Shown: piece by piece, positions 41,263 to 56,545 of the stretch
How positions within the stretch are numbered: the first letter of the stretch is position 1
Layout of the letters: each line of letters begins with the position of its first letter
Assembly (NCBI GenBank): GCA_030158675.1
Contig: JAOASL010000040.1
Location: 199,249-263,248 of the forward strand
Reading direction: 5' to 3'
Origin: Burkholderiaceae bacterium
GTDB taxonomy: Bacteria > Pseudomonadota > Gammaproteobacteria > Burkholderiales > Burkholderiaceae_D
Length of the DNA stretch: 64,000 nt
The notes under the pieces: model-generated
What the model was told of the DNA's origin: nothing
Seen by the model: only the letters and a program-made list of their open reading frames with translations
The model's database searches: none
Translations under genes and position numbers: made by a program

Positions 41263-42213
41263 TCAGGGCTGCGTGCCGGCTTTCAGCTGGAGCTTGCGCC
41301 GGATCTCCGGCAATGCCGCCATCGCTGCCTTCTCGCCGGCCAGGATGGCCAGGTTCCTGCCCTGAAAATCTCCGCCTTTCATCGTTGCCAGCTCAGGTCG
41401 GATCACCACATCGGCCTGCTTCAGCTCGTACTGATTCAGGCTCTGCCCCATGATCGCAAAGGTCTGCAGCAGCACCTCGAAAGTGCTCGATGCCGGCTGC
41501 GCGTCAGGCTGCGCCGAAATGTTCACCGCAATCACAAATTCCGCGCCCATCTTGCGCGCGAAACTCACCGGCACCGGCGACACCAGACCGCCGTCGACAT
41601 AATCGACGTTACCGACACGAACCGGATGAAATACCCCCGGCACCGCTGACGAAGCGCGCACGGCGGCGCCGGTATTACCACGCCTGAACAGGATGGCCTG
41701 CCCGCTGTGCAGATCGGTCGCAACCGCGCCGAACGGCAGTTTCAATTTTTCTATCGGCTGACCATTGAGCGCGCGATTCACGTAATTCTGGATCGCCTCG
41801 CCTTTCAGCACGCCGGTCGACTGCGAGAAAAACGGCACCGCCCAATCCGAAATCGCCGCCTCGTCCATCTCGATTGCCATTTTCTGCAATGCATAAGCAT
41901 CGTTACCGGCCGCGTACAGCGCGCCGACCAGACTGCCGGCGCTGGTGCCAGCCACGAAGTCGGGCACGATGCCCTGCGCCTCAAGAACCTTAATCACGCC
42001 AATATGCGCGAAGCCACGCGCAGCGCCGCCGCCAAGCGCCAGCCCTATCCTGATGCGGCGCGGTACGACGGGAGAAGCATCCACCGGCGGTACTGCGCCA
42101 TCAGGCGTCGTGGCGACCGGCTTGCCCGGCGCCGATACAGGGGGCAGCGTCGAAGTTGTCTGGCAGGCGGACAGCAATGCTGACGTGAGCAGCAGGATAA
42201 GGAATTGGCGCAT
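41263..42213 (-). CDS. Patatin-like phospholipase, predicted lipoprotein
   Basis: A 316-residue RssA/patatin-type serine lipase. The signal peptide ends in a lipobox (LLSAC, Cys17). The oxyanion loop is GGGAARGFAHIG. The nucleophile is Ser91 in GTSAGS, and the catalytic Asp is in the DGG motif of VDYVDGGLVS, so the Ser-Asp dyad is intact. It probably acts on phospholipids or lysophospholipids at the envelope. It is convergent with the NlpC/P60 gene and lies 58 bp downstream of the CorA/ZntB-like gene. Confidence 0.9.
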   Translation of the reverse strand: MRQFLILLLTSALLSACQTTSTLPPVSAPGKPVATTPDGAVPPVDASPVVPRRIRIGLALGGGAARGFAHIGVIKVLEAQGIVPDFVAGTSAGSLVGALYAAGNDAYALQKMAIEMDEAAISDWAVPFFSQSTGVLKGEAIQNYVNRALNGQPIEKLKLPFGAVATDLHSGQAILFRRGNTGAAVRASSAVPGVFHPVRVGNVDYVDGGLVSPVPVSFARKMGAEFVIAVNISAQPDAQPASSTFEVLLQTFAIMGQSLNQYELKQADVVIRPELATMKGGDFQGRNLAILAGEKAAMAALPEIRRKLQLKAGTQP

Positions 42214-42271
42214 CAGGAGAATGAGAGCATCAGTGTCATCGGGAAAGCCGGCATTCTATCCGACCGGAATT

Positions 42272-43297
42272 TTATCCCCCACGCCTGCGTGTCAGCGCCC
42301 ACAGCGCCAGCGATGTGAACGCCACTACCAGCCCGACCACGACCCAGAACCCATGCTCGTGCTCGGCCAGCGGTATGCCGGCGACATTCATGCCAAACAG
42401 ACCGGCGATCAGGTTGACTGGCAGCGCGACCACCGTAAACACCGTCAATGTGTAAAGACTTCGGCTGCTGCGCTCGTTGATCATCGCGGCAATCTCTTCC
42501 TGTAGCAGCTTGATGCGCTCCTGCAGCGAGCCCATGTCGTTCAACACCGCGGAGAATTCTTCGCTTGACTCCCGTAGTTCCTGCAAGTCGGTGCCGGCAA
42601 TCCAAGCCGGCGGTCGCTGCAGCAGGCGGAACAGCGCAGCCGGCTCCGGCGCCATCAGCCGCTGCAACCGAACAAGCACGCGACGCAGGCTCCCGAGGTT
42701 GCCACGCTTCGAATCCAGCCGCCCGGCCAGCAGATCATCTTCGATCTTGTCGACCCGCTCGACCGCGTCACGCACGATACCGATGAGCACATCGGCCTGA
42801 TCGCGCAGCAAATGTGTCAGCAGCTCGACCGTCGAGCGGATCGGTGTGCCGTTCTGCACCGCCTGACGCAAGCGGTCGACCGATTTCAATGGCTTCCTGC
42901 GCGCACTAATTACCATGCCGGGCGTGACATAGACCCACAGCGTCGAGATCTCGGATGGCTCAAACGAGAAGCCGTGCAGTACATCGTTCATCACCGTCAG
43001 CAGGCCGTCATCAACCCGGTCGACCCGCGTAGAGCGCGAACCCTGTTGCAGCGACTCGAAAAACTCCGGCGGCAGGAACGCATGCGTGCGCAGCCACCGC
43101 TCGGTCGATGCCTGGCTGAGGTTGAAGTGCATCCAGAGCAGCGAACCATCGCTGCGCAACATCCTCTGGTGGACATCGATCTCGGCAACCAGCGCCTCAG
43201 CCTCCAACGGCACAGGCGCATGCGGCGCGCCGAGCCGGTAGGCCCAGACCAGGCCGGTCGGATCGACGCGGAATTCCTGCCAGGAGCGGTCTTTCAT
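42272..43297 (-). CDS. CorA/ZntB-family divalent metal transporter
   Basis: A 341-residue member of the CorA superfamily. A long, mostly helical cytoplasmic domain (1-280) is followed by two C-terminal membrane helices. The selectivity motif at the end of TM1 is FGMNVAGIP, matching GMN. The N-terminal domain (WMHFNLSQASTERWL) is closer to ZntB (zinc) than to Mg-transporting CorA, but the substrate is not settled. The ATG at 43297 is chosen over one 17 codons upstream because the conserved start is MKDRSWQEF. Confidence 0.85.
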   Translation of the reverse strand: MKDRSWQEFRVDPTGLVWAYRLGAPHAPVPLEAEALVAEIDVHQRMLRSDGSLLWMHFNLSQASTERWLRTHAFLPPEFFESLQQGSRSTRVDRVDDGLLTVMNDVLHGFSFEPSEISTLWVYVTPGMVISARRKPLKSVDRLRQAVQNGTPIRSTVELLTHLLRDQADVLIGIVRDAVERVDKIEDDLLAGRLDSKRGNLGSLRRVLVRLQRLMAPEPAALFRLLQRPPAWIAGTDLQELRESSEEFSAVLNDMGSLQERIKLLQEEIAAMINERSSRSLYTLTVFTVVALPVNLIAGLFGMNVAGIPLAEHEHGFWVVVGLVVAFTSLALWALTRRRGG

Positions 43298-43350
43298 AAA
43301 AAATTTTTGGGAAAATTGGGACAAATACCGCGCGGCCGGGCCGCGCAAAA

Positions 43351-43380
43351 GAAAAAAGCGCCCCGGACCGGGGCGCTTTT
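43351..43380 (-). terminator. Rho-independent terminator after the porin gene
   Basis: Arms AAAAGCGCCCC (43354-43364) and GGGGCGCTTTT (43370-43380) with a 5-nt loop; on the minus strand it is followed by a T run. It lies 22 bp after the porin stop. Confidence 0.9.
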
Positions 43381-43402
43381 AGGGACGAACTTGGGTAAAC
43401 GA

Positions 43403-44854
43403 TCAGAACGACAGCTGAGCGCGCAGCATGAGTGCGCGATCTTTGGTGATCTGAGCGCCCGCTGCACCGACGGCCTTGCCGTCGAAGTCGGTGGCCGTAT
43501 AGTTCAGCATGAAACGGGCGTAGTCGTTCACGAACCAGGTCAGGCCGGCGGTTGCCGCAGTGGCCTTGTTGGTCGTGCCGCTTGCCGCTTCGACATCCGA
43601 AGCATCGAAGGCGCTAAAACGCAGGCCGACCTGCCATGCACCCAGACCGCCTTTGGACAGCGAGAACGGCTGGTTCGGCTTGATCCAGCCGAAGGTGCCC
43701 GACGAATTGCTGTAGTTATGCTTTTCGCCGGTCAGGTTGTACACCACTTGCGCGTAGTAGCCATTGAACTTGTCAGTCTGGTTGGCGCCTTCGTACTTGT
43801 AGTTAAAGTATTCAGCCTGGACCTTCAGCGCTTCATATGCGATGGCCGCTTCGAGGCCCATGCGCTGGCGCGTCACCGGACCCGTCAATGCAGTCTTCGC
43901 CTTGAAGAAGCCCGGCATCGCGCGCGTTTCGTCTCGCTCGCTGCCGGGCGTCATGCCCTTCAGTTCGCCGTTGCTGTAAGCCAGACCGAGGTGGGTGACC
44001 AGCGCATCATTGCCGGCGAAAATCTTGGCCGCGTTGATCGTGCCGCGTGCGAGGAAATCAGGTTTGTCATAAGTCGCGTCGTTGTTGCCGCGGCCGGTCG
44101 ACATTGCCACCGCATAGCTTGCGCCAGCCACCGGGCTGCCAAACAACATCAGGCCGGTCTCTTTGCCCGGCACCAGTTCCTTGTCCGACTGACCGACCAG
44201 GCTGCGCTCCATGAAGTCGATGTTGTTCGAGCTGGTGAGCTGCTCGAGGCTGAACGGCATCTTGAATTTACCAAAGCGCACCGATGCGGCCGGATTCGCC
44301 GCATAGTCGACGTAAGCTACGTCGATCTCGGTCGCACCGGAGCTCATGCCGTTGCTCGACATGCCGTAGTTGCCGACGATCTCGTACTTCCAGTCTTTCA
44401 TGAACTGGCCCTTTACACCGAGGCGCGCACGGCGCACTTCGAGCGCGTTCTGCAACGGATCGACGCTGCTGCCACTGGCCGAGGTATGACCGTAGTTACG
44501 ATAATCCATGTGGATGCGACCGGTCAGCTGGATCGAGCTTTCGCCGTCAGCCGACTGGATGCCGATACCGTTCTTCATCACCTGGCCGGCTTCGGCGTTC
44601 TTCTGGATGAAAGAATTTGCCTTCGCCAGATCCTGGTCGACGCGCTTTTCCTTGAAGGCCTTGTTTTCTTCGGCATCGCGCGTCGTGTCGACGAATTCGT
44701 CGTAATCCTTCTGTGTAATCACGCCCTTCTTCAGCATCAGATCCAGCAGGGCCTTGTTATCGACTGCGAATGCCGGCGCCGACAACGATGCGCACACCGT
44801 TGCCACCGCGATGGCAACCCGCTTGGCTGCGATGATGTTCTTCGAGTTGTTCAT
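43403..44854 (-). CDS. Phosphate-selective porin O/P family (OprP/OprO-like)
   Basis: A 483-residue outer-membrane trimeric porin of the Porin_O_P type, in which OprP/OprO conduct phosphate or polyphosphate. The signal peptide ends SLSAPAFA. A short helical segment follows (LMLKKGVITQKDYDEF), then 16 amphipathic strands beginning SSIQLTGRIHMDYR, with EVRRARLGVKGQFMKDWKYE as family marker. The C terminus LRAQLSF ends in Phe. A weak PhoB-box-like site lies about 100 bp upstream. The neighbours ppx, phoX and pst fit a phosphate role, but selectivity is not proven by sequence. Confidence 0.9.
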   Translation of the reverse strand: MNNSKNIIAAKRVAIAVATVCASLSAPAFAVDNKALLDLMLKKGVITQKDYDEFVDTTRDAEENKAFKEKRVDQDLAKANSFIQKNAEAGQVMKNGIGIQSADGESSIQLTGRIHMDYRNYGHTSASGSSVDPLQNALEVRRARLGVKGQFMKDWKYEIVGNYGMSSNGMSSGATEIDVAYVDYAANPAASVRFGKFKMPFSLEQLTSSNNIDFMERSLVGQSDKELVPGKETGLMLFGSPVAGASYAVAMSTGRGNNDATYDKPDFLARGTINAAKIFAGNDALVTHLGLAYSNGELKGMTPGSERDETRAMPGFFKAKTALTGPVTRQRMGLEAAIAYEALKVQAEYFNYKYEGANQTDKFNGYYAQVVYNLTGEKHNYSNSSGTFGWIKPNQPFSLSKGGLGAWQVGLRFSAFDASDVEAASGTTNKATAATAGLTWFVNDYARFMLNYTATDFDGKAVGAAGAQITKDRALMLRAQLSF

Positions 44855-46653: not shown

Positions 46654-47037
46654 ATGACGAAACAAGCAAACGCCGCAAAGAAAACATCCACTGCCCGACC
46701 CACCGAACCGGTCGCAGCGAAGAAAACTGTCAGGAAGTCGGCCGGCACGCCGGCGACCAAGGCCGTGAAATCCGCCAATCCCGCTCCGGCACCGAAGGCC
46801 ACCGCCGAAAAGCAGAAGAAACCGAAACTCGTTCGCGACAGTTTCACGATGCCCGAGAACGAGTACGCATTGATTACCCAGGTGAAAAAAGCCTGCGTCA
46901 GCGCCGGCTTCGAGATCAAGAAGAGCGAACTGCTACGCATCGGCATCACGCTGCTGGCAGCGATGGATCCGAAGAAGCTGCAGACCGCGCAGCAGGCGCT
47001 GACGCCGCTGAAGACGGGTCGTCCGAAAAAGAAGTAA
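46654..47037 (+). CDS. H1-like Lys/Ala-rich protein with a ribbon-helix-helix-like C terminus
   Basis: A 127-residue very basic protein of unknown function. Residues 1-58 are Lys/Ala/Pro/Thr-rich with AAKK-type repeats, like bacterial histone H1-like tails. Residues 59-105 (KLVRDSFTMPENEYALITQV, then ELLRIGITLLAAM) look like a small ribbon-helix-helix fold, with a strand, helix and helix pattern. The end is basic again (GRPKKK). It is probably DNA-binding. It has its own sigma-70 promoter. It lies between ppx and phoX inside the segment bounded by the 20-bp repeats. Family name unknown. Confidence 0.7.
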   Translation: MTKQANAAKKTSTARPTEPVAAKKTVRKSAGTPATKAVKSANPAPAPKATAEKQKKPKLVRDSFTMPENEYALITQVKKACVSAGFEIKKSELLRIGITLLAAMDPKKLQTAQQALTPLKTGRPKKK

Positions 47038-47077: not shown

Positions 47078-47111
47078 GGGTCATCAAGCTTTCATCGAAA
47101 CCTGCTCTGAT
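47078..47111 (+). promoter_or_regulatory. Pho box and -10 of phoX
   Basis: GGGTCAT (47078-47084), CAAG, CTTTCAT (47089-47095): 11 of 14 positions match two CTGTCAT units. After 10 bp comes TCTGAT (47106-47111, 4 of 6 to TATAAT). The leader to the phoX ATG is about 37 nt. Confidence 0.6.
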
Positions 47112-47154: not shown

Positions 47155-49302
47155 ATGAAAGACACCGACAAGCCGTCCGGCAATCCCGATTTCTCTGCAA
47201 TCCTCGACGCACGTCTGTCGCGGCGCAGCCTGCTCAAAGGCTCGCTGGCCGCAGCGGCCGCCGGCTATTTCGGTAGCGGCAGCCTGTGGCTGTCGCCGGC
47301 TGGCGATGCGCAGGCGGCGACACGCGCACTGACGCTGAACTTCAGCGCGATTCCGAAACACACCGACGATACGCTGCGCATCGCCACCGGCTATTCATGG
47401 TCGGTGCTACTGGCCACCGGCGATCCGCTCGATCCCGCCTTGCCTGCCTATGCGAACGACGGCAGCGATGAGGCAACCAGCTTCGCGCGCCGCGCCGGCG
47501 ACCACAACGACGGTATGCATTTTTTCGGTATCGGCCGCAATGGGCATTGGAACCGCCGCGCCTCCGATCGCGCGCTGCTGTGCATCAACCATGAAGCGGT
47601 CACCGGTGCCTTCCTGCATCCCAAGGGCCAGACCATCATCGACGGCTGCCGCGTCTCCGATGACGAAGTGCTGAAGGAGATGCTGGCGCACGGCGTCAGC
47701 GTGATCGAGGTACGGCGCCAAGACCAGCACTGGCAACGCGTACCCGATTCACGTTTTACGCGCCGCATCACGACCTTCACTGACATGGCCATCAGCGGAC
47801 CGGCGGCGCGCAGCACGCTGCTGGTGACGCCGTACTCGCAGACCGGCACGCGCACGCGCGGCACCGTCGCCAACTGCGCGAGCGGACATACGCCGTGGGG
47901 CACCTACCTGACCTGCGAAGAAAACTGGGCCGGCTATTTCCGGCGGCTGCCAACGGACGACGCCCACCGCAGCCAGAAGGAAATCGCCGCGCTGAAGCGT
48001 TACGGCATCGCCGGCGCCGGACGCGAATTGTGGGCCAGCGTGCAGCCGGACACAGCCGACCGTCGCTATGGCCGCTGGGACGCGTCCGTGCGCGGCTCAT
48101 CCGCCGACGGCAGCGATGACTATCGCCATGCGCCGAATACCTTCGGCTGGGTGGTCGAGATCGATCCGTTCGACCCGCTCTCGACACCGACGAAGCGCAC
48201 CGCGCTCGGCCGCTTCGCGCACGAGGGCGCGTGGCCGGGACCGGTGATACCCGGCCAGCCGCTGGTCTGGTACATGGGCTGCGACGGGCGCGGCGAATAT
48301 ATCTACAAATACGTATCAAAAGCCAGCTGGGATCCGGCCGATGCCGACCGCGGCATTGACGCAGGCAACAAGTATCTTGATGAAGGCCGTCTGTATGTCG
48401 CCCGCTTCAACGCGGACGGCAGTGGCGACTGGCTGGAACTTAAGCACGGTATGAATGGCATCACGGTGACGAATCCGGCCTACCCGTTCGCTGACTACGC
48501 CGACGTACTGGTGCATGCGCGGCTGGCCGCCGACGCCGCCGGTGCAACCAAAATGGACCGTCCGGAATGGGGCGCGGTCAATCCGCACAATGGCGAGGTC
48601 TATATGACCCTGACCTACAACCCGTCACGCGAACTGGCGCAGCTTGATGCGGCTAATCCGCGCTTCTATACCGACCCCAAGGCCGGCAAGCAGGGCCGCG
48701 GCAATGTGAACGGCCACATCATCCGCTGGGCCGAGCAAGACAGTCGCGCCGACGCGACCCGCTTCAGCTGGGACATATTCCTGTTCGCCGCGCGCGAAAC
48801 GGCCGACCGCGAACACGTCAATTTATCCGGGCTGGCCGACAGCAATGACTTCTCGTCGCCGGACGGCCTGTGGTTCTCGCACAGCGGCCTGCTGTGGATC
48901 GAGACCGATGACAGCGCCTACACCGACAAGAGCAACTGCATGCTGCTGGCCGCCCTCCCCGGCAAGGTCGGCGACGGCGGCAGCCGCACGGTGAGCAGCC
49001 GCGACGGCGACGCAGAAAAACATATCGTCACCCAGATCGGCAAACCGGCCACCGAGTCCAGCCTGCGGCGTTTCCTGGTCGGCCCGGTCGATTGCGAAAT
49101 CACCGGACTGGCCGAGTCGCCCGACGGTTGCGCGCTGTTCGTCAACATCCAGCATCCGGGGGAGACCACCAGCGGCAAGGGCTTCGCCATTGGCACACCC
49201 GCCAGCTACTTCAGCCACTGGCCCGGCGGCGGCGATACGCGACCGCGCTCGGCCACCATCGTCATCACCCGCGACGACGGCGGCCCGGTCGGCGCCGGCT
49301 GA
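47155..49302 (+). CDS. phoX: PhoX-family alkaline phosphatase, Tat-exported
   Basis: A calcium/iron-dependent monomeric alkaline phosphatase releasing phosphate from phosphoesters in the periplasm. The 715-residue protein has a twin-arginine signal SRRSLLKGSLAAAAAGYFG (residues about 22-40). The mature part carries PhoX (DUF839) landmarks: CINHEAVTGAF, TPWGTYLTCEENWAGYF, a GRFAHEGAW segment, and SPDGLWFSHSGLLWIETDDS. The ATG at 47155 has a GGAG site. A Pho-box-like promoter precedes it. Its 3' end carries the second copy of the 20-bp direct repeat. No terminator is seen before the following lipid operon. Confidence 0.92.
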   Translation: MKDTDKPSGNPDFSAILDARLSRRSLLKGSLAAAAAGYFGSGSLWLSPAGDAQAATRALTLNFSAIPKHTDDTLRIATGYSWSVLLATGDPLDPALPAYANDGSDEATSFARRAGDHNDGMHFFGIGRNGHWNRRASDRALLCINHEAVTGAFLHPKGQTIIDGCRVSDDEVLKEMLAHGVSVIEVRRQDQHWQRVPDSRFTRRITTFTDMAISGPAARSTLLVTPYSQTGTRTRGTVANCASGHTPWGTYLTCEENWAGYFRRLPTDDAHRSQKEIAALKRYGIAGAGRELWASVQPDTADRRYGRWDASVRGSSADGSDDYRHAPNTFGWVVEIDPFDPLSTPTKRTALGRFAHEGAWPGPVIPGQPLVWYMGCDGRGEYIYKYVSKASWDPADADRGIDAGNKYLDEGRLYVARFNADGSGDWLELKHGMNGITVTNPAYPFADYADVLVHARLAADAAGATKMDRPEWGAVNPHNGEVYMTLTYNPSRELAQLDAANPRFYTDPKAGKQGRGNVNGHIIRWAEQDSRADATRFSWDIFLFAARETADREHVNLSGLADSNDFSSPDGLWFSHSGLLWIETDDSAYTDKSNCMLLAALPGKVGDGGSRTVSSRDGDAEKHIVTQIGKPATESSLRRFLVGPVDCEITGLAESPDGCALFVNIQHPGETTSGKGFAIGTPASYFSHWPGGGDTRPRSATIVITRDDGGPVGAG

Positions 49303-49341: not shown

Positions 49342-49359
49342 CTGTAACCAAACCGACAT
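49342..49359 (+). promoter_or_regulatory. Possible Pho box before the lipid operon
   Basis: CTGTAAC (49342-49348), CAAA, CCGACAT (49353-49359): 10 of 14 matches to a CTGTCAT direct repeat, 68 bp before the ATG. No good -10 hexamer stands 10 bp downstream, so it is weaker than the pstS, pstC and phoX sites. Confidence 0.35.
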
Positions 49360-49426
49360 ACCGCCGTCACGCTGCTGCAGCATTCGCTCGCTACTCTCAG
49401 GTGCAAGACCAACATGAGGAGTAATC

Positions 49427-50194
49427 ATGCGCCTGACGACCGTACGATCCGATGCCACCCCGAGCTTTCCGAAACTGTCGCTGAGCCTGGCGACTACGTC
49501 CGAAGAAGTGCGCGAAGTACAGCGCCTGCGCTACCAGGTATTCGTCGAGGCGATGGACCTCGGTTCGCTGCGCAACAGCGAAGGCCTTGAAAAGGATGAC
49601 TTCGACGATTACTGCGATCACCTGCTGGTGCGCGACACGCGCACGCTGAAGGTGGTCGGCACCTACCGCGTGCTTGGCGGACGCGGTCTCGTGCGCACCG
49701 GCGGCTTCTACGCGGAAAATGAATTTGACCTGTCGCGCCTGCATCACCTGCGACCGCGCCTGCTCGAGGCCGGCCGTGCCTGTATTCATCCCGACTATCG
49801 CGGCGGCGGCGTCCTGATGATGCTGTGGGCCGGACTGGCTGCATGCATGAAGCGCGAGAACGCCGAGTACCTGATCGGCTGCGCCAGCGTCAGCCTGGCC
49901 GACGGCGGCAATACCATCAATGGTCTGTATCACCAGCTTGCGACTGCGCACATGGCGCCGCCCGAGTATCACGTCGAGCCGAAGCTGGTTTTCCCGCTGC
50001 ATGACGAGCCGCCGTCTACCATGGTGACGGTGCCGGCCCTGATCAAGGGCTACCTGCGCAGCGGCGCATGGATTTGCGGCCTGCCTGCCTGGGACCCCGA
50101 TTTTCACTGCGCCGACCTGTTCATGATGCTGCCGCTGGCGCGCCTGGAAAGCCGCTATGCGCGGCACTATCTGAAAGACGAGGCCGCCGCATGA
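49427..50194 (+). CDS. OlsB-like N-acyltransferase (GNAT fold)
   Basis: A 255-residue GNAT-type acyltransferase related to OlsB, which transfers a 3-hydroxy fatty acid from ACP to the alpha-amino group of ornithine, the first step of ornithine-lipid synthesis. The early segment EVREVQRLRYQVFVEAM, the VVGTYRVLGG strand and the acceptor/cofactor region ARACIHPDYRGGGVLMMLW fit this group (COG3176-like). The ATG at 49427 has a GAGGAG site. Its stop overlaps the next start (ATGA). No OlsA O-acyltransferase is in the operon, so the end product could be a lyso-lipid completed by an enzyme elsewhere. The acceptor amine is inferred. Confidence 0.8.
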   Translation: MRLTTVRSDATPSFPKLSLSLATTSEEVREVQRLRYQVFVEAMDLGSLRNSEGLEKDDFDDYCDHLLVRDTRTLKVVGTYRVLGGRGLVRTGGFYAENEFDLSRLHHLRPRLLEAGRACIHPDYRGGGVLMMLWAGLAACMKRENAEYLIGCASVSLADGGNTINGLYHQLATAHMAPPEYHVEPKLVFPLHDEPPSTMVTVPALIKGYLRSGAWICGLPAWDPDFHCADLFMMLPLARLESRYARHYLKDEAAA

Positions 50195-51060
50195 ACGCGC
50201 GCGACGTCTTCGCCGACGGCAAGACGAAGAGCCGGCTGATCGACCACCCGCGCCACAAGGCGGTGCCACTGCGCTTTCGTACCATCTTCATCTCCGACCT
50301 GCACCTCGGCACCAGCGGCTGCCAGGCCAAGCGCCTGCTGGAATTCCTGAAGGCCACCGAGTCGGACAAGCTGTATCTGGTCGGCGACATCATCGACGGC
50401 TGGCAACTGAAGCGGCGCTGGTACTGGCATCAGACACACAATGATGTCGTCCAGCTGGTGCTGAAGAAGGCGAAGAAAGGTACCCGCGTCATCTTCGTGC
50501 CGGGCAATCATGACGAATCCGTGCGCCAGTTCATCGGCCAGGATTTCGGCGGCATCAAGGTACGCGACGAACACATTCACACGACCGCCGACGGCAAGCG
50601 CATGCTGGTGCTGCACGGCGACCGCTTCGACGGCGTGATCGCCTGTGCGAAGTGGCTCGCCTATGTCGGTGATTCGCTATACACGATGATCCTGAAGTTC
50701 AACCAGGTCTACAACGCCTGGCGCGCACGCGCCGGCCTGCCCTACTGGTCGCTGTCGCAATACCTGAAGCTGAAGGTAAAAAACGCTGTCAGCTACATCA
50801 GCTCGTTCGAACAGGCGCTGGCTGCCGAGGCGCGCAAGCAGGGTGTGGACGGCGTGGTCTGCGGCCACATCCACAAGCCGGAAATCCGCGATATCGACGG
50901 CATCCTGTACTGCAACGACGGCGACTGGGTAGAAAGCCTGTCGGCGCTGGTCGAGGAAGCCGACGGCACGCTGCGGCTGGTCGACTGGCATGAAGTCATG
51001 CTGCGCTGGGAACAGGGTCAATACATCGCGAAAGCCACGCCATGCGCAGTGCCGGCCTGA
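50191..51060 (+). CDS. PlcP-like metallophosphoesterase (phospholipase C of lipid remodelling)
   Basis: A 289-residue calcineurin-like phosphoesterase. All metal-binding motifs are intact: SDLHLG (D36, H38), GDIIDG (D66), GNHDE (N106, H107, D108), LHGDRFD (H142) and CGHIHK near residue 237. It resembles the PlcP enzymes of rhizobia, which are often mislabelled UDP-2,3-diacylglucosamine hydrolases (LpxH). PlcP removes phosphorylated head groups from phospholipids during phosphate starvation, giving diacylglycerol. The WYWHQTHNDVVQ segment and the operon with a glycosyltransferase support PlcP over LpxH. It overlaps olsB-like by 4 bp and the glycosyltransferase by 19 bp. Confidence 0.8.
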   Translation: MNARDVFADGKTKSRLIDHPRHKAVPLRFRTIFISDLHLGTSGCQAKRLLEFLKATESDKLYLVGDIIDGWQLKRRWYWHQTHNDVVQLVLKKAKKGTRVIFVPGNHDESVRQFIGQDFGGIKVRDEHIHTTADGKRMLVLHGDRFDGVIACAKWLAYVGDSLYTMILKFNQVYNAWRARAGLPYWSLSQYLKLKVKNAVSYISSFEQALAAEARKQGVDGVVCGHIHKPEIRDIDGILYCNDGDWVESLSALVEEADGTLRLVDWHEVMLRWEQGQYIAKATPCAVPA

Positions 51061-52259
51061 ACCGTCTGCAAAGGCTGTGCGATGCCGGCTTGTTCGACGG
51101 CTTCGAACTGAGCGCGGCAGGCCAGCTATTCCCTTCTGTCCGCAAGACTTCGCGCGTGCTTGTGCTGTCGGTATCGGCCGGCGCCGGCCACACGCGCGCC
51201 GCGGAAGCGCTGGTCGCTCATGCGCAGTCTGAATTCCCGCGCCTGTCGGTGCAGCATACCGACATGATGTCGGTGGTGCCGCGCTGGTTTCGCGCGATTT
51301 ATCGCGACCTCTACCTGAGCCTGTCGGCCGGCCTGCCGGAAGTCTGGGGCTGGTTGTATCGCAAGACGGGCGAATCCGCCTCCGCCAGTCTCAGCGAGCG
51401 CCTGCGCCAGCGACTGCAGCAGCTGGGCGCGCGGCAGCTGTTTTCCGAAATCGAAAATTACCGGCCGGATGCCATCATCTGCACGCATTTCCTGCCAGCC
51501 GAACTGCTTGCAGCCGAACGCCGGGCCGGACGACTCGACTGTCCCGTCTGGGTACAGGTCACCGACTTCGACCTGCATCGGATGTGGGTGCATGAAGGCA
51601 TCAGCGGGTATTTTGTCGGCAGCGAGGAGCTGGCTTTCCGGCTGCGCATGCAGGGCGTGCCGGACGCGCAGATCGAGATCAGCGGCATACCGGTGATGCC
51701 GGGCTTCGCCGCCACCCATGCGCGAACGCAGGCGGCGGCCGCGCTCGGGCTTGATCCGGGCCTGGCGACCGTGCTGATGATGAGCGGCGGCGCCGGTGCG
51801 GGCCTGCAAAAGGAAACCATACGCATGCTGCTGGCGCAGCACCGGCAATTGCAGCTGATCGTGCTGGCCGGCCGCAACGATGCGTTGCGCCAGTCATTGC
51901 AGGAGCTCGTCAGCCTGCAGCCAGCGCGCCTGCGCGTGTTCGGCTTCACCGACGACGTGCACCGGATGATGGCCTGCGCCGATCTGGCGATCACCAAGCC
52001 TGGCGGGCTATCGACATCCGAATGCCTGGCGATGGGCTTGCCGATGCTGCTGGTGAATCCGATTCCGGGACAGGAAGAACGCAACGCCGCCTACCTGATG
52101 CAGGAAGGCGCAGCAGTGCGCGCCGACGATCCGCTGACGCTGCAATTCCGGCTACAGCGACTGCTCGGCGATCCGACCCAGCTGGCGCGCATGCGCGAGC
52201 GTGCGCTGGCGCTGGCAAAGCCGCTGGCAGCAAAGAAGGTTCTGCAAAAGATCGCATGA
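51042..52259 (+). CDS. GT28-type diacylglycerol glycosyltransferase (MGDG-synthase-like)
   Basis: A 405-residue GT-B glycosyltransferase of the MGDG synthase/MurG/UgtP group. The N-terminal lipid-binding domain starts LVLSVSAGAGHTRAAEALV and includes CTHFLPAELLAAE and VQVTDFDLHRMWVHEG. The C-terminal donor domain has MMSGGAGAGLQKE, FGFTDDVHRMMACADL and TKPGGLSTSECLAMGLPML. It likely transfers a sugar from a nucleotide sugar to diacylglycerol made by the upstream phospholipase, giving a phosphorus-free glycolipid. The sugar is not determinable. Its start overlaps the phospholipase gene and its stop overlaps the next start (ATGA). Confidence 0.82.
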   Translation: MRSAGLNRLQRLCDAGLFDGFELSAAGQLFPSVRKTSRVLVLSVSAGAGHTRAAEALVAHAQSEFPRLSVQHTDMMSVVPRWFRAIYRDLYLSLSAGLPEVWGWLYRKTGESASASLSERLRQRLQQLGARQLFSEIENYRPDAIICTHFLPAELLAAERRAGRLDCPVWVQVTDFDLHRMWVHEGISGYFVGSEELAFRLRMQGVPDAQIEISGIPVMPGFAATHARTQAAAALGLDPGLATVLMMSGGAGAGLQKETIRMLLAQHRQLQLIVLAGRNDALRQSLQELVSLQPARLRVFGFTDDVHRMMACADLAITKPGGLSTSECLAMGLPMLLVNPIPGQEERNAAYLMQEGAAVRADDPLTLQFRLQRLLGDPTQLARMRERALALAKPLAAKKVLQKIA

Positions 52260-52726
52260 CCATGACCATCACGTGCTTGTCGTTCGCCGCCACCCTCGCC
52301 TTCGTGATGCTGCTGGGTACGTTCTTCGCCAAGCTGGAGATCGCGATCGAGGGCGACGCCGGCTGGGCCGCCAATCTGCCAACCTGGCGCATCGAACATC
52401 ACTGGCTACTCGACTTGCTCTGGGGCGGCCGCGCGATGACGGGCTATCACGCGTGGGCGTTTTCGCTGGTCGCACTATTCTTTCATTTCCCGCTGGTGTT
52501 CAGCGGCGACTACCGCATGGGGACCGAATTGCGCGCGCTGGGCAGCATCATGCTGTTCTGGGTCTGCGAGGATTTTCTGTGGTTTGTCTTCAACCCGGCG
52601 TTCGGGCTGCGAAAATTCCATCCCACACATGCCGGGTGGCATAAGCACTGGGTGTGTGGCGCGCCGGTGGAATACTGGATCTTCGGACCGGTCGGGCTGT
52701 GGGTTCTGTGGCGCTCGTATGCGTGA
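52256..52726 (+). CDS. Unknown four-helix membrane protein in the lipid operon
   Basis: A 156-residue protein of no family I recognise. Hydrophobic helices lie at about residues 6-24, 62-82, 90-110 and 138-153. Between them are conserved-looking aromatic/His clusters (WRIEHHWLLDLLWGG, FHPTHAGWHKHW), which could bind metal or face the membrane surface. The ATG at 52256 overlaps the glycosyltransferase stop by 4 bp, so it is very probably translated with it. Context suggests a role in glycolipid or ornithine-lipid metabolism (modification, flipping or enzyme anchoring), but nothing in the sequence proves it. Confidence 0.75.
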   Translation: MTMTITCLSFAATLAFVMLLGTFFAKLEIAIEGDAGWAANLPTWRIEHHWLLDLLWGGRAMTGYHAWAFSLVALFFHFPLVFSGDYRMGTELRALGSIMLFWVCEDFLWFVFNPAFGLRKFHPTHAGWHKHWVCGAPVEYWIFGPVGLWVLWRSYA

Positions 52727-52761: not shown

Positions 52762-53220
52762 CTATTCAGTGAAAAATTCAGGCGCCAACACTGCCTTCAG
52801 ATAAATCGCATTGCCATCTTCGCGGTCACGCTGCGCGAACCACCATGCGTTGGCTTTCTTCACGCTCCAATCGTGCTGCTGCCCGGTCAACAACAGTGCC
52901 GCGACCTGACCCAGCCAGGGCTGGTGGCCAACCAGCAGCACCTGACCGCGTCCATCCGGCCAGCCGGCTACCTCAAGCACCTGCTGCGGCGTTGCACTCG
53001 GACCGATCTCCTGCACAAGCTTGTATTTTCGCCCGAGCGCATCGGCGGTCTGCCGAGTGCGCACCGCCGGGCTGCACAGGATGCGGCAACCACTCGGCAG
53101 GCTGCGGTCCAGCCAGGCGGCCATGCGTGCGGCCTGCTTGCGGCCCAGTGGCGTCAGCGGTCGCTCGATATCGGGCAGGCCGTCCTCGGCCTGCGCGTGT
53201 CGCCACAGAATGATGTCCAT
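52762..53220 (-). CDS. sixA: Phosphohistidine phosphatase SixA-like
   Basis: A 152-residue histidine-phosphatase-superfamily protein: ILWRHAQAE carries the phospho-accepting His (RH motif), and the second His is in LLVGHQPWLG. SixA removes phosphate from HPt domains or the nitrogen PTS; here it is coupled to ppk, as in many proteobacteria. The ATG at 53220 overlaps the ppk stop (ATGA); a TTG one codon upstream is less likely. It is convergent with the lipid operon, 35 bp from its end. Confidence 0.88.
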   Translation of the reverse strand: MDIILWRHAQAEDGLPDIERPLTPLGRKQAARMAAWLDRSLPSGCRILCSPAVRTRQTADALGRKYKLVQEIGPSATPQQVLEVAGWPDGRGQVLLVGHQPWLGQVAALLLTGQQHDWSVKKANAWWFAQRDREDGNAIYLKAVLAPEFFTE

Positions 53221-55316
53221 CAACTGCCCAGCTCCTTCATCAGATGGTGCTGCGCACTGAAAGGCTGCTGGCGCGCGCTTGGCTTCTTGCGCTGGTAATC
53301 GCCGTCGGCGCCCAGCTCCCAGGCATTCTGGTTGTCCTTCAGGTAGGGCTTGAGTCCCTCGTCGATCACGCGCTTTTTCAGCTGCCGGTCCAGCACCGGG
53401 AATGCGACTTCGACGCGCCGGAACAGATTCCGGTTCATCCAGTCGGCGCTGGCCAGATGCACATCGTTCGCGCCGTCATTGCGGAACAGGAAGATGCGGC
53501 TGTGCTCAAGGAAACGACCGACGATGGAGCGCACACGAATATTGGCCGACAGGCCGGGCACGCCGGGCCGCAGCACGCAGGCGCCGCGCACGATCAGGTC
53601 GATCTTCACGCCCGCCTTGGACGCCTCGTATAGCGCCGCGACGATGGATTCGTCCTGCAAGGTATTCATCTTCGCAATGATCTGCGCCGGCCGGCCCTCG
53701 GCCGCGATGCGGGTCTCGTTGCGGATCGCCTTCACCAGCTCTTTCTGCAACTCGAACGGCGCGACCCACAGATGATTGAGTTTCTTCGGGCGGGTCAGGC
53801 TGGTGAGATTGATGAAGACTTCATTGACGTCACGCGCCAGTGCCTGGTTCGCGGTCATCAGGCCGAAGTCGGTATAGAAACGGGTAGTGGTCGGATGATA
53901 GTTGCCCGTGCCGAGGTGCGCATACAGGGTCAGCCGGCCCGACTCACGACGGATCACCAGCGCCATCTTCGCGTGTGTCTTCATGCCGACCACGCCATAC
54001 ACCACCTGCGCACCGACGCGCTCGAGCTTGTCAGCCCAGTTGATATTCGCTTCTTCGTCAAAGCGCGCCATCAGCTCGACCACCACCGTCACTTCCTTGC
54101 CGTTCTGCGCGGCGACGATCAGCGCTTCCATCAGCTCGGAATTCATGCCGGTACGGTAGATCGTCTGCTTGATCGCCACCACCGACGGATCGCGCGACGC
54201 GGCACGAATGAAATCGATGACGGGCTGGAACGACTGGAAAGGATGATGCAGCAGGATGTCGTTGCGCGCGATCAGCGCGAACAGCTCGCTGCCGCTCGCC
54301 GGCACCGACAGCTGGGGCACGAATGGCGGGAAACGAAATTCCGGCTTCGATGCGTAGTCAATCAGTTCATTGAGCCGAACCATGTTGACTGGGCCATCGA
54401 CCGCATACAGGAACTCGGGCGCGATATTGAACTGGTCGAGCAGGAACTGCGCAAGCTGGGACGGACAATTCTGCGCGACCTCAAGTCGCACCGCAAAACC
54501 GAATTGCCGGGTCTGCAGTTCGCCCTTCAGCGCTTGCCGCAGGTTTTTCACTTCTTCTTCATCGACCCACAGGTCGCTGTCACGCGTGACGCGGAACTGC
54601 GAATAGCCGAGCACCTCGCGGCCCGGGAACAGGTCGGCAATGTGCGCATGGATCACCGATGACAACAGGCACCAGGCGGCACCGTCGCCATTCAGCCCGT
54701 CCGGCAGCCGGATAATGCGTGGCAGCACGCGCGGCGCCTTCATCACCGCGATCGATGTGCCGCGACCGAATGCATCCTTGCCGTCCAGCTCGACGATGAA
54801 GTTCAGGCTTTTGTTGACAACTTGCGGGAAAGGATGGGCAGGATCGAGCATGATCGGCGTCAAGAGCGGTCGCACCTCGCGCTCAAAGTACTCTTTCACC
54901 CAAGTGCGTTGAGCGTCATTCCGGTCTGCATGGCGCAGCAGGTGAATGCCTGACTCCGCCAGCGCCGGAAGGATCTGCTCGTTCAGCGTTGCATACTGTT
55001 GCCGAACCAGCTCATGGGCGACCGTATGAACCGCGCCGAAATTGCTCAGCGATACCCGCTGCTGTGCTCCGCCGTCTGCGCGGTCGCGGGCCAGCAAGCT
55101 GGCCACGCGCACCTCGAAGAATTCGTCGAGATTGCTGCTGACAATGCACAGGAATTTCAGGCGCTCCAGCAGCGGCATCGAGGCATCCAGCGCCTGCGCC
55201 AGCACACGCCGGTTGAACGCCAGCAGCGACAGTTCGCGATTAAGCCGTACCGGCACGGCGGACACGGCATCGGAGGAGAGCGCCGGGCGCGCGGCGGATT
55301 TTCTCGGGGCAGTCAT
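53220..55316 (-). CDS. ppk1: Polyphosphate kinase 1
   Basis: Makes inorganic polyphosphate from ATP reversibly. The 698-residue protein has the N domain (LNRELSLLAFNRRVLAQA), head domain and two phospholipase-D-like catalytic domains. The autophosphorylated His is in VGMKTHAKMALV, and the second conserved His is in the HSRIFLF region. ATGs at 55340 and 55316 are possible. The Pho-box-like site covers 55339-55356, so 55316 is chosen. It forms an operon with sixA and diverges from pstS. Confidence 0.95.
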   Translation of the reverse strand: MTAPRKSAARPALSSDAVSAVPVRLNRELSLLAFNRRVLAQALDASMPLLERLKFLCIVSSNLDEFFEVRVASLLARDRADGGAQQRVSLSNFGAVHTVAHELVRQQYATLNEQILPALAESGIHLLRHADRNDAQRTWVKEYFEREVRPLLTPIMLDPAHPFPQVVNKSLNFIVELDGKDAFGRGTSIAVMKAPRVLPRIIRLPDGLNGDGAAWCLLSSVIHAHIADLFPGREVLGYSQFRVTRDSDLWVDEEEVKNLRQALKGELQTRQFGFAVRLEVAQNCPSQLAQFLLDQFNIAPEFLYAVDGPVNMVRLNELIDYASKPEFRFPPFVPQLSVPASGSELFALIARNDILLHHPFQSFQPVIDFIRAASRDPSVVAIKQTIYRTGMNSELMEALIVAAQNGKEVTVVVELMARFDEEANINWADKLERVGAQVVYGVVGMKTHAKMALVIRRESGRLTLYAHLGTGNYHPTTTRFYTDFGLMTANQALARDVNEVFINLTSLTRPKKLNHLWVAPFELQKELVKAIRNETRIAAEGRPAQIIAKMNTLQDESIVAALYEASKAGVKIDLIVRGACVLRPGVPGLSANIRVRSIVGRFLEHSRIFLFRNDGANDVHLASADWMNRNLFRRVEVAFPVLDRQLKKRVIDEGLKPYLKDNQNAWELGADGDYQRKKPSARQQPFSAQHHLMKELGS

Positions 55317-55322
55317 TAATCC

Positions 55323-55356
55323 AGAGTAAACCTTGTGCATGACAGGATTGTTACAT
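55323..55356 (-). promoter_or_regulatory. Pho box and -10 of ppk1
   Basis: Minus strand: ATGTAAC (55356-55350), AATC, CTGTCAT (55345-55339), then 10 bp and TACTCT (55328-55323). The second half is a perfect PhoB unit; 11 of 14 match overall. The -10 ends 6 bp before the ATG at 55316, implying a leaderless or very short leader. Confidence 0.6.
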
Positions 55357-55422
55357 TCACACCGCCCCTGCGCCACCCAATCCAGCCTGCCAGCCGAGGG
55401 TTACAGGCATCATTGCAAGTTG

Positions 55423-55456
55423 CTGTCATAAACATGACATAAATATTTCGTACAGT
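55423..55456 (+). promoter_or_regulatory. Pho box and -10 of pstS
   Basis: CTGTCAT (55423-55429), AAAC, ATGACAT (55434-55440): 12 of 14 matches. After exactly 10 bp comes TACAGT (55451-55456), within the 10-mer TACAGTCCGA that is also found at pstC. The leader is about 36 nt. Confidence 0.8.
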
Positions 55457-55498: not shown

Positions 55499-56545
55499 AT
55501 GCGTAGCAATCAACTCATTAAAAGCTTCGTCGCAGCCACCGCCGGCGTCCTGCTGAGCCTGTCGGCCCAGGCGGCCGACCTGACCGGTGCCGGCGCTACC
55601 TTCCCATTTCCGATTTATTCGAAATGGGCCGAGGCCTACAAGGCACAGACTGGCATCGGCCTGAACTATCAGTCCATCGGTTCCGGTGGCGGCATCCGCC
55701 AGATCAAGGCCAAGACCGTGGACTTCGGCGCATCGGACATGCCGCTGAAGGCAGACGAGCTGGACAAGGAAGGCCTGATGCAATTTCCGGCCATCATTGG
55801 TGGCGTGGTGCCGGTGTTTAACATCGACGGCATCGCAGCCGGCCAGCTGAAGCTGACACCGGAAGTCGTTGCCGCCATCCACCTTGGCAAGATCACCAAA
55901 TGGAACGACGCAGCCATTGCCAGCCTGAACCCGGAGCTGAAGCTGCCGGCGCTGGCAATCACCGTCGTCCATCGCGCCGACGGCTCGGGCACGACCTTCC
56001 TGTGGACCGACTATCTGTCGAAGGCAAACGCCGATTTCAAGGCGACGATTGGCTCGGGCACGGCAGTCAAGTGGCCGACCGGCGTCGGCGGCAAGGGCAA
56101 TGAAGGCGTGGCCGCCAACGTGCAACGCGTGAAAGGTGCGTTCGGCTATGTCGAGTATGCGTATGCGAAGAAAAACAAGATCGCCTTTGCCCAGCTGAAA
56201 AACCGTGATGGCGCATTCGTATCGCCGGACGACGAAACCTTCAAGGCGGCTGCCGCCAACGGCGACTGGGTCGGCACGCCGGGCATGGCCGTGGTGCTGA
56301 CGAACCAGCCGGGCAAGAACAGCTGGCCGGCAACGGGCGCGTCCTTCATCCTGATGCACAAGACCCAGCCCGAAGCGCTCACTGGCCGCGCTGTGCTGAA
56401 ATTCTTCGACTGGGCCTACAAGAGCGGCGGCGCAATGGCGACCGATCTGGACTACGTGCCGATGCCTGCCAACGTCGTCAAGCAGATCAATGAGCTGTGG
56501 AAGTCGTCGCTGAAAGATGGTGGCGGCGCGGCGATCTGGAAGTAA
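55499..56545 (+). CDS. pstS: Phosphate ABC transporter, periplasmic binding protein
   Basis: A high-affinity phosphate-binding protein delivering phosphate to PstCA. The 348-residue protein has a signal peptide ending LSLSAQAA, then the family start DLTGAGATFPFPIYSKW. Phosphate-binding residues lie in the GSGGGIRQI turn, DFGASDMPL and HRADGSGTTF. The ATG at 55499 has an AAGGAG site. Unlike the common pstSCAB operon, it stands alone on the plus strand, with its own Pho box and a strong terminator, while pstCAB run convergently 6-7 kb away. Confidence 0.97.
   Translation: MRSNQLIKSFVAATAGVLLSLSAQAADLTGAGATFPFPIYSKWAEAYKAQTGIGLNYQSIGSGGGIRQIKAKTVDFGASDMPLKADELDKEGLMQFPAIIGGVVPVFNIDGIAAGQLKLTPEVVAAIHLGKITKWNDAAIASLNPELKLPALAITVVHRADGSGTTFLWTDYLSKANADFKATIGSGTAVKWPTGVGGKGNEGVAANVQRVKGAFGYVEYAYAKKNKIAFAQLKNRDGAFVSPDDETFKAAAANGDWVGTPGMAVVLTNQPGKNSWPATGASFILMHKTQPEALTGRAVLKFFDWAYKSGGAMATDLDYVPMPANVVKQINELWKSSLKDGGGAAIWK

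What the first reader, a model, noticed from the sequence alone, without database searches (positions are those of the whole stretch)
49427..52726. Candidate Pho-regulated membrane-lipid remodelling operon: OlsB-like, PlcP-like, GT28 and an unknown membrane protein
Four plus-strand genes overlap one another (4, 19 and 4 bp). Family knowledge: PlcP strips head groups from phospholipids under phosphate limitation, glycosyltransferases in rhizobia and marine bacteria use the resulting diacylglycerol for glycolipids, and OlsB starts ornithine-lipid synthesis. Here all three activities appear fused into one operon inside a phosphate island. The glycosyltransferase is a GT28/MGDG-synthase type, OlsA is absent and a fourth gene is uncharacterised. 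Inference: the operon swaps phospholipids for phosphorus-free lipids. I am not aware of this exact gene set being described.
Basis: partly seen in the sequence, partly recalled or inferred. Interest (0 to 1): 0.85.

Follow-up and report, generated by a model that had tools for sequence, protein, structure and literature searches.

The report
Low-phosphate membrane lipid swap operon
A bacterium akin to Oxalobacteraceae carries, in one operon with a predicted phosphate switch, genes that look able to strip phosphate from membrane lipids and build sugar- and ornithine-headed replacements, plus a conserved small membrane protein of no known family that nearly always sits beside the sugar-adding enzyme.

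Summary
In detail: four plus-strand genes overlap by 4, 19 and 4 bp (49427-52726) inside a phosphate island. Gene 2 groups with PlcP-type proteins and apart from LpxH (100/100); the genome has a separate LpxH. Gene 1 is OlsB-like; a candidate OlsA lies elsewhere. Gene 3 is nearest to UgtP/YpfP processive diacylglycerol glucosyltransferases. A triple Pho half-site is predicted at 49342-49370, and 20 of 22 olsB upstream regions score as Pho boxes. Gene order suggests how the operon was assembled: olsB-plcP is a pair in five family relatives that lack GT28 there, and GT28 plus gene 4 is a separate pair; the two are joined in the window's clade and a few other lineages. Some stand-alone pairs have their own Pho box. 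Gene 4 has no Pfam or NCBIfam family and no PDB sequence match, a confident model with four long helices, and conserved polar residues mostly assigned to one face. PlcP-glycosyltransferase operons and Pho-boxed olsB are already published, so this is a new variant of a known kind; the new part is gene 4, which I infer acts on the GT28 glycolipid. No lipid, expression or activity was measured.

The parts
49342..49370 (+). Predicted Pho box: three half-sites at 11-base steps, CTGTAAC-caaa-CCGACAT-accg-CCGTCAC, 85 to 57 bases before olsB
   Evidence: letters. The matrix picks 49353-49370, score 11.2 against a 95% shuffle level of 9.0; the first half-site was added by eye. The consensus search with up to 3 mismatches did not list this site
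49427..50194 (+). OlsB-like N-acyltransferase (first step of ornithine lipid synthesis, inferred)
   Evidence: PF13444 116.9 bits; NCBIfam OlsB models 162.8 and 144.6 bits, under their cut-offs of 350 and 320
50191..51060 (+). PlcP-type phospholipase C (phospholipid to diacylglycerol, inferred)
   Evidence: groups with PlcP-type proteins, LpxH apart at 100/100; own LpxH elsewhere; start supported by a match from residue 1 to L214
51042..52259 (+). GT28 diacylglycerol glycosyltransferase of UgtP/YpfP type (inferred)
   Evidence: MGDG_synth and Glyco_tran_28_C; PRK13609 226.7 bits, cut-off 500; PDB 9wde E 2.4e-40, 4wyi E 1.1e-31
52256..52726 (+). Unknown 156-aa membrane protein, GT28 partner (acts on the glycolipid, inferred)
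   Evidence: no family over cut-off; no PDB sequence match; model pLDDT 91.8 with four long helices; GT28 directly upstream in 77 of 80 loci
47155..49302 (+). phoX alkaline phosphatase, directly upstream; Pho-box-like site (3 mismatches) at 47078-47095
   Evidence: PF05787 446.5 bits
52762..53223 (-). sixA-like phosphohistidine phosphatase, convergent flank
   Evidence: TIGR00249 66.2 bits, cut-off 74.5
53220..55376 (-). ppk1 polyphosphate kinase, flank; Pho-box-like site (3 mismatches) at 55339-55356, inside the first codons of this longest frame and before an inner ATG
55499..56545 (+). pstS, flank; Pho box (2 mismatches) at 55423-55440

Best explanation
This is a PhoB-switched membrane-lipid remodelling operon. 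When phosphate is low, PlcP removes phosphorylated head groups from phospholipids and leaves diacylglycerol (inferred from family). The UgtP/YpfP-type GT28 puts one or more hexoses on that diacylglycerol, most likely glucose (inferred). OlsB, with an OlsA encoded elsewhere, makes ornithine lipid in parallel (inferred). Gene 4 is a dedicated partner of the GT28: a membrane protein with four long helices whose conserved acidic, His and Arg residues lie mostly towards one membrane face; I think it modifies the finished glycolipid there, or moves it across the membrane (inferred). The operon arose by joining an olsB-plcP pair of the phosphate island to a GT28-gene 4 pair (both separate pairs are shown in relatives; the direction of change is inferred).
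For: Overlapping genes in a phosphate island. PlcP/LpxH split 100/100, 13 rows each, including a P. aeruginosa protein whose gene is followed by a glycosyltransferase and an adenylate cyclase gene. GT28 nearest to a processive DAG glucosyltransferase. olsB upstream regions exceed the shuffle 95% level in 20 of 22. Stand-alone GT28-gene 4 pairs: 10 of 49 exceed the 95% and 6 of 49 the 99% level, against 2 and 0 of 49 inside the gene; the six lie at -68 or -69. GT28 directly before gene 4 in 77 of 80 loci and in 10 of 10 other genomes of an order sample with a strong gene 4 match. The plcP-linked state needs at least 3 changes on the GT28 plus gene 4 tree; starred branches force 2. Candidate OlsA.
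Against: No lipid, enzyme or expression data. OlsB, OlsA and GT28 all score under NCBIfam equivalog cut-offs. GT28 plus gene 4 occurs in genomes with no PlcP-grade match (G239 4.2e-12, G327 1.6e-6, and G173 not among the matches), so PlcP is not needed for its work everywhere. 39 of 49 stand-alone pairs show no Pho box over the 95% level, and the six best are Massilia or near kin, so not independent. 46 of 80 loci have the pair with no plcP directly upstream; two, L127 and L167, have gene 4 with no GT28 upstream. The consensus search missed the olsB site. Gene 4's role rests on linkage and conservation alone.
Confidence: 0.68

Rival explanations
1. Gene 4 is a small flippase for the glycolipid, working like LtaA beside YpfP in Staphylococcus (GT28 plus membrane partner), though not of that family.
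For: GT28 and gene 4 nearly always adjacent; a GT28 product made on the inner face must cross the membrane (general knowledge); four long helices.
Against: 14 charged, His or amide positions are kept in at least 95% of 57 sequences, 12 of 14 on the face I defined, where 90 of 156 residues lie; this looks more like an active site. LtaA is a far larger transporter (recalled).
Confidence: 0.25
2. Gene 4 is only a membrane anchor or activator of the peripheral GT28.
For: Tight pairing; three genomes with a GT28 of at least 47% identity show no gene 4 match (G158, G083, G113), so it is an accessory.
Against: Invariant polar residues towards one face, which K+R density weakly places outside, are not expected of an anchor for a cytosolic enzyme.
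Confidence: 0.15
3. The GT28-gene 4 pair serves another envelope glycolipid and sits next to plcP by chance or for co-regulation only.
For: The pair usually has no plcP directly upstream (46 of 80 loci) and exists without PlcP-grade matches (G239, G327); it is followed by a dual-specificity phosphatase and a YdcF gene in three Caballeronia records.
Against: Linkage to plcP changed at least 3 times on the tree; own Pho boxes in part of the stand-alone pairs; ppk-GT28-gene 4-ppx order in two Luteibacter loci.
Confidence: 0.15
4. Gene 2 is a second LpxH-type lipid A enzyme rather than PlcP.
For: Database records name many of its relatives UDP-2,3-diacylglucosamine diphosphatase; LpxH model 52.4 bits.
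Against: Below the LpxH cut-off of 190.35; separate over-cut-off LpxH in the same genome; tree split 100/100.
Confidence: 0.03

Closest known systems
PlcP-Agt lipid remodelling (P. aeruginosa PA3219-PA3218, Phaeobacter, SAR11, Methylosinus)
   Same: plcP with a diacylglycerol glycosyltransferase, often in an operon and with a Pho box (PMC8528852, PMC4796936, PMC9239053; passages read)
   Different: Here the glycosyltransferase is GT28, not GT4 Agt; no Agt ortholog found in the genome; olsB leads the operon; gene 4 is added
plcP beside a Bacillus-type DAG glycosyltransferase in type Ia methanotrophs (PMC9239053)
   Same: plcP neighbouring a DAG glycosyltransferase of the Bacillus kind
   Different: olsB beside plcP and gene 4 are not mentioned in the passages and sections read (figures not held); the paper says its products await validation
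UgtP/YpfP with LtaA (Staphylococcus)
   Same: GT28 processive glucosyltransferase paired with a membrane protein (recalled)
   Different: Gene 4 is 156 aa with four long helices, not a large transporter; setting is phosphate starvation, not lipoteichoic acid
Pho-boxed olsB in Burkholderia sensu lato (PMC7814305)
   Same: OlsB homolog with predicted Pho box (21 of 43 genomes in that paper)
   Different: The passages seen do not mention plcP beside it

Membership tests
PlcP | Groups with known PlcP and apart from LpxH in a tree | tested here: met
   100/100 split, 13 PlcP-type and 13 LpxH-type rows, 100% of 200 bootstrap trees; the tool warned of long branches. That the P. aeruginosa row is PA3219 and the S. 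meliloti row SMc00171 is taken from gene context and recall
PlcP | Metallophosphoesterase metal-site motifs | tested here: met
   D36, H38, D66, N106, H142, H226, H228 kept in both groups, all or all but one row; H107 where LpxH has R. That these are metal ligands is recalled
PlcP | Phospholipase C activity under low phosphate | not testable with these tools
   needs enzyme assay
LpxH | TIGR01854 score over cut-off 190.35 | tested here: not met
   51.7 bits; the genome's own LpxH has 252.9
OlsB | PF13444 acyltransferase domain over cut-off | tested here: met
   116.9 bits, cut-off 22.4
OlsB | NCBIfam OlsB equivalog cut-off | tested here: not met
   162.8 against 350 and 144.6 against 320; still the best families. 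Hence 'OlsB-like'
UgtP/YpfP processive DAG glucosyltransferase | MGDG_synth and Glyco_tran_28_C domains over cut-off | tested here: met
   87.4 and 38.9 bits
UgtP/YpfP processive DAG glucosyltransferase | NCBIfam PRK13609 equivalog cut-off | tested here: not met
   226.7 against 500. Hence 'UgtP-type'
PlcP-Agt pathway | GT4 Agt glycosyltransferase in the genome | tested here: not met
   best match to the GT4 of L126 in the own genome 41.9 bits, 38% over 109 residues
Pho regulon | Pho box upstream | tested here: met
   matrix score over the 95% shuffle level; missed by the consensus search at up to 3 mismatches; prediction only
Pho regulon | PhoB-dependent induction by low phosphate | not testable with these tools
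   needs expression data
LtaA-type flippase | Large multi-helix transporter of the MFS kind (recalled) | tested here: not met
   156 aa, four long helices; no Pfam match over cut-off in 57 members
Any solved fold for gene 4 | Structural match | tested here: inconclusive
   second look at 56 chains; figures under Tried and rejected

The most novel reading that the evidence does not exclude
Gene 4 founds a new family of membrane proteins, mostly in Burkholderiales, that chemically modify or flip a phosphate-starvation glucolipid made by a UgtP-type GT28 in Gram-negative cells, giving a new surrogate lipid or the missing transport step of glycolipid remodelling.
Probability: 0.35. Interest if true: 0.72.

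Novelty: new variant of a known kind. Interest (0 to 1): 0.52.

Why it matters
It puts two known escapes from phosphorus in membranes, glycolipid and ornithine lipid, behind one predicted switch. It uses a GT28 where the operons in the papers seen mostly use GT4 Agt, and exposes a conserved uncharacterised partner protein whose function can be tested directly. How surrogate glycolipids leave the inner leaflet of Gram-negative cells is, to my knowledge (recalled), an open question that gene 4 might let one test.

Tried and rejected
Rejected: gene 2 as LpxH. Rejected: GT28 as MurG (TIGR01133 57.4 bits against PRK13609 226.7). Rejected: 'OlsA missing from the genome'. Weakened: a strict need for PlcP (G239, G327, G173).
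Full report
OBSERVATION. The longer frame of gene 2 from 50068 is not needed: a same-genus protein aligns from residue 1 of the 50191 start (L214). The window lies in G000, 3.0 Mb, 49 contigs. Its nearest named relatives of gene 4 are MAG contigs, many labelled Oxalobacteraceae. Flanks: an OprP-type porin (43403-44854, minus), ppx, phoX, sixA-like, ppk1, pstS, phoR, a PhoB-type response regulator, phoU, and ABC parts of the Pst kind.

GENE 1. PF13444 at 116.9 bits; OlsB models are the best NCBIfam families but below cut-off. It is the only PF13444 match in the genome. OlsA is not in the operon. Of two PF01553 acyltransferases in the genome, the one on C7 (beside a gene that I read as dihydroorotase, no family search) scores best with OlsA models (116.6 and 112.2 bits, cut-off 300), the other with the 1-acylglycerol-3-phosphate acyltransferase model. 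So an OlsA candidate exists.

GENE 2. It matches a P. aeruginosa protein at 53.8% and an S. meliloti protein at 50.0%. In the P. aeruginosa record it is followed by a glycosyltransferase and an adenylate cyclase gene, which I take for the PA3219-PA3218-PA3217 region. The S. meliloti gene lies beside autoinducer genes, which fits SMc00171 (recalled). In a 26-row tree the PlcP-type and LpxH-type sets split at 100/100; the tool warned of long branches within both. The genome's own LpxH is on C27. Many records call these PlcP-type proteins UDP-2,3-diacylglucosamine diphosphatase, a likely misannotation.

GENE 3. MGDG_synth plus Glyco_tran_28_C; best NCBIfam match diglucosyl diacylglycerol synthase PRK13609, 226.7 bits under a cut-off of 500; best PDB sequence matches a processive DAG beta-glucosyltransferase (9wde) and then plant MGD1 (4wyi). 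The sugar donor is not shown.

GENE 4. No match over cut-off in Pfam or NCBIfam, none in PHROGs. 359 stretches of named genomes encode a relative, best 80 kept. In 57 aligned sequences 34 columns are invariant. AlphaFold2 gives pLDDT 91.8 and long helices at 2-32, 63-83, 88-112 and 138-155; that they cross the membrane is inferred, no predictor was run. Fourteen charged, His or amide positions are kept in at least 95% of sequences; 12 lie in the helix ends and loops that I assigned to one membrane face (90 of 156 residues), 2 (H77, R93) outside it. K+R density per segment is higher on the other face, which weakly suggests that the conserved face is periplasmic. No coordinates were available to test whether these residues meet in space.

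GENE ORDER. In five family relatives (G178, G209, G298, G007, G141) olsB and plcP are adjacent, with sixA, ppk and pstS in the fetched stretch in three of the five, and no GT28 or gene 4 in any of the five stretches. Four of these genomes carry GT28 plus gene 4 elsewhere. In an order sample of 349 genomes gene 4 matched 12 (11 strong including the own genome, one weak with a stop); all 11 strong ones also have the GT28 at 47% identity or more, adjacent in the 10 other genomes inspected. Three genomes have such a GT28 with no gene 4 match (G158, G083, G113), and three more a GT28 at 37-39% (G016, G032, G139). This asymmetry suggests that gene 4 depends on GT28. Among the 80 named loci: olsB-plcP-GT28-gene 4 in 14; plcP-GT28-gene 4 in 10, plus 2 where the contig begins; pair with no plcP directly upstream in 46; pair with contig start too near in 5; gene 4 without GT28 upstream in 3 (L135 at a contig edge, L127, L167). 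The 80 are the nearest to the query, hence biased to its clade, and three (L128, L129, L131) share one stretch. In L126 and in those three a GT4 gene stands between plcP and GT28. In seven same-genus genomes the four-gene order stands in 5 of 7, plcP-GT28-gene 4 with olsB apart in L225, and L229 is cut; contig lengths show that 5 of the 7 stretches are contigs already, so the two sets are not independent. On a tree of GT28 plus gene 4 (81 rows, quick method; 10 loci left out beforehand as duplicate, truncated or without GT28, and short rows dropped) the plcP-linked state needs at least 3 changes, 2 forced by starred branches.

PHO BOXES. The consensus of PMC8528852 with up to 3 mismatches gives 8 hits in the window, 4.0 expected; 6 of 100 shuffles had as many, so the count alone is weak. 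Four of the 8 lie at phoX, ppk, pstS and the first pst permease gene; the other four were not followed; the olsB site is not among the 8. A matrix trained on 17 pstS upstream regions puts 20 of 22 olsB upstream regions above the 95% shuffle level; phoX 6 of 11, ppk 12 of 23, plcP 11 of 32, pstS itself (training) 16 of 17; controls sixA 0 of 28, ppx 0 of 8, the 46654 gene 1 of 13. Shuffles kept single-base composition only, and many loci are close kin. In the window the matrix picks 49353-49370, and with a third half-site seen by eye the set runs 49342-49370. Stand-alone GT28 genes: 10 of 49 over the 95% and 6 of 49 over the 99% level, control inside the gene 2 and 0 of 49; the six lie at -68 or -69, five in Massilia loci and one in a Janthinobacterium MAG, one part of the tree.

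MECHANISM. Shown by sequence: gene set, order, homology, conserved linkage, predicted Pho boxes. Inferred: PlcP makes diacylglycerol, GT28 glycosylates it, OlsB/OlsA make ornithine lipid, and gene 4 acts on the GT28 product.

PRIOR WORK (passages read unless stated). PMC8528852: plcP-agt1 operon with Pho box, glycolipids shown by mutants. PMC4796936: plcP often in an operon with a glycosyltransferase, six neighbourhood types, one with a glycosyltransferase confirmed to make di- and tri-glycosyl lipids. PMC9239053 (passages, and sections 8 and 9 in full): plcP near a Bacillus-type DAG glycosyltransferase in Methylobacter. PMC5082522: PhoBR-dependent PlcP and OlsAB in a soil Pseudomonas. PMC7814305: predicted Pho boxes before olsB in 21 of 43 genomes. 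Not seen in the title and abstract listings: this gene set or gene 4. LtaA/YpfP is recalled; one search gave listings only.

VERDICT. Real, well conserved and functionally coherent; a new variant of known PlcP-based remodelling. The open part is gene 4.

Noticed in passing
window 46654-47037: A 127-aa Lys/Ala-rich protein with no Pfam match stands between ppx and phoX; homologs sit near olsB or phoX in a number of relatives. It may be a DNA-binding protein of the phosphate island.
   Followed up: partly
window 41263-44854: A patatin-like phospholipase, a CorA transporter and an OprP-type phosphate porin extend the island upstream.
   Followed up: partly
L155 and L166 (Luteibacter): GT28 plus gene 4 lies between ppk and a ppx-like gene in Rhodanobacteraceae, which hints at transfer with phosphate genes.
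   Followed up: partly
L002, L027, L028 (Caballeronia plasmid records): The GT28-gene 4 pair is followed by a dual-specificity phosphatase gene and a YdcF gene; a possible other source of diacylglycerol.
   Followed up: no
L128, L129, L131 (Noviherbaspirillum autotrophicum): What looks like the same 16-kb stretch appears at two places of one contig and on another contig (same gene positions, identical GT28 upstream regions): a true triplication or an assembly fault.
   Followed up: no
L167 (MAG labelled Muiribacteriota): A gene 4 homolog at 58% identity without GT28 in a contig binned to a distant phylum; transfer or contamination.
   Followed up: partly
records: PlcP-type proteins are widely annotated as UDP-2,3-diacylglucosamine diphosphatase (LpxH), including in P. 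aeruginosa and S. meliloti records.
   Followed up: yes
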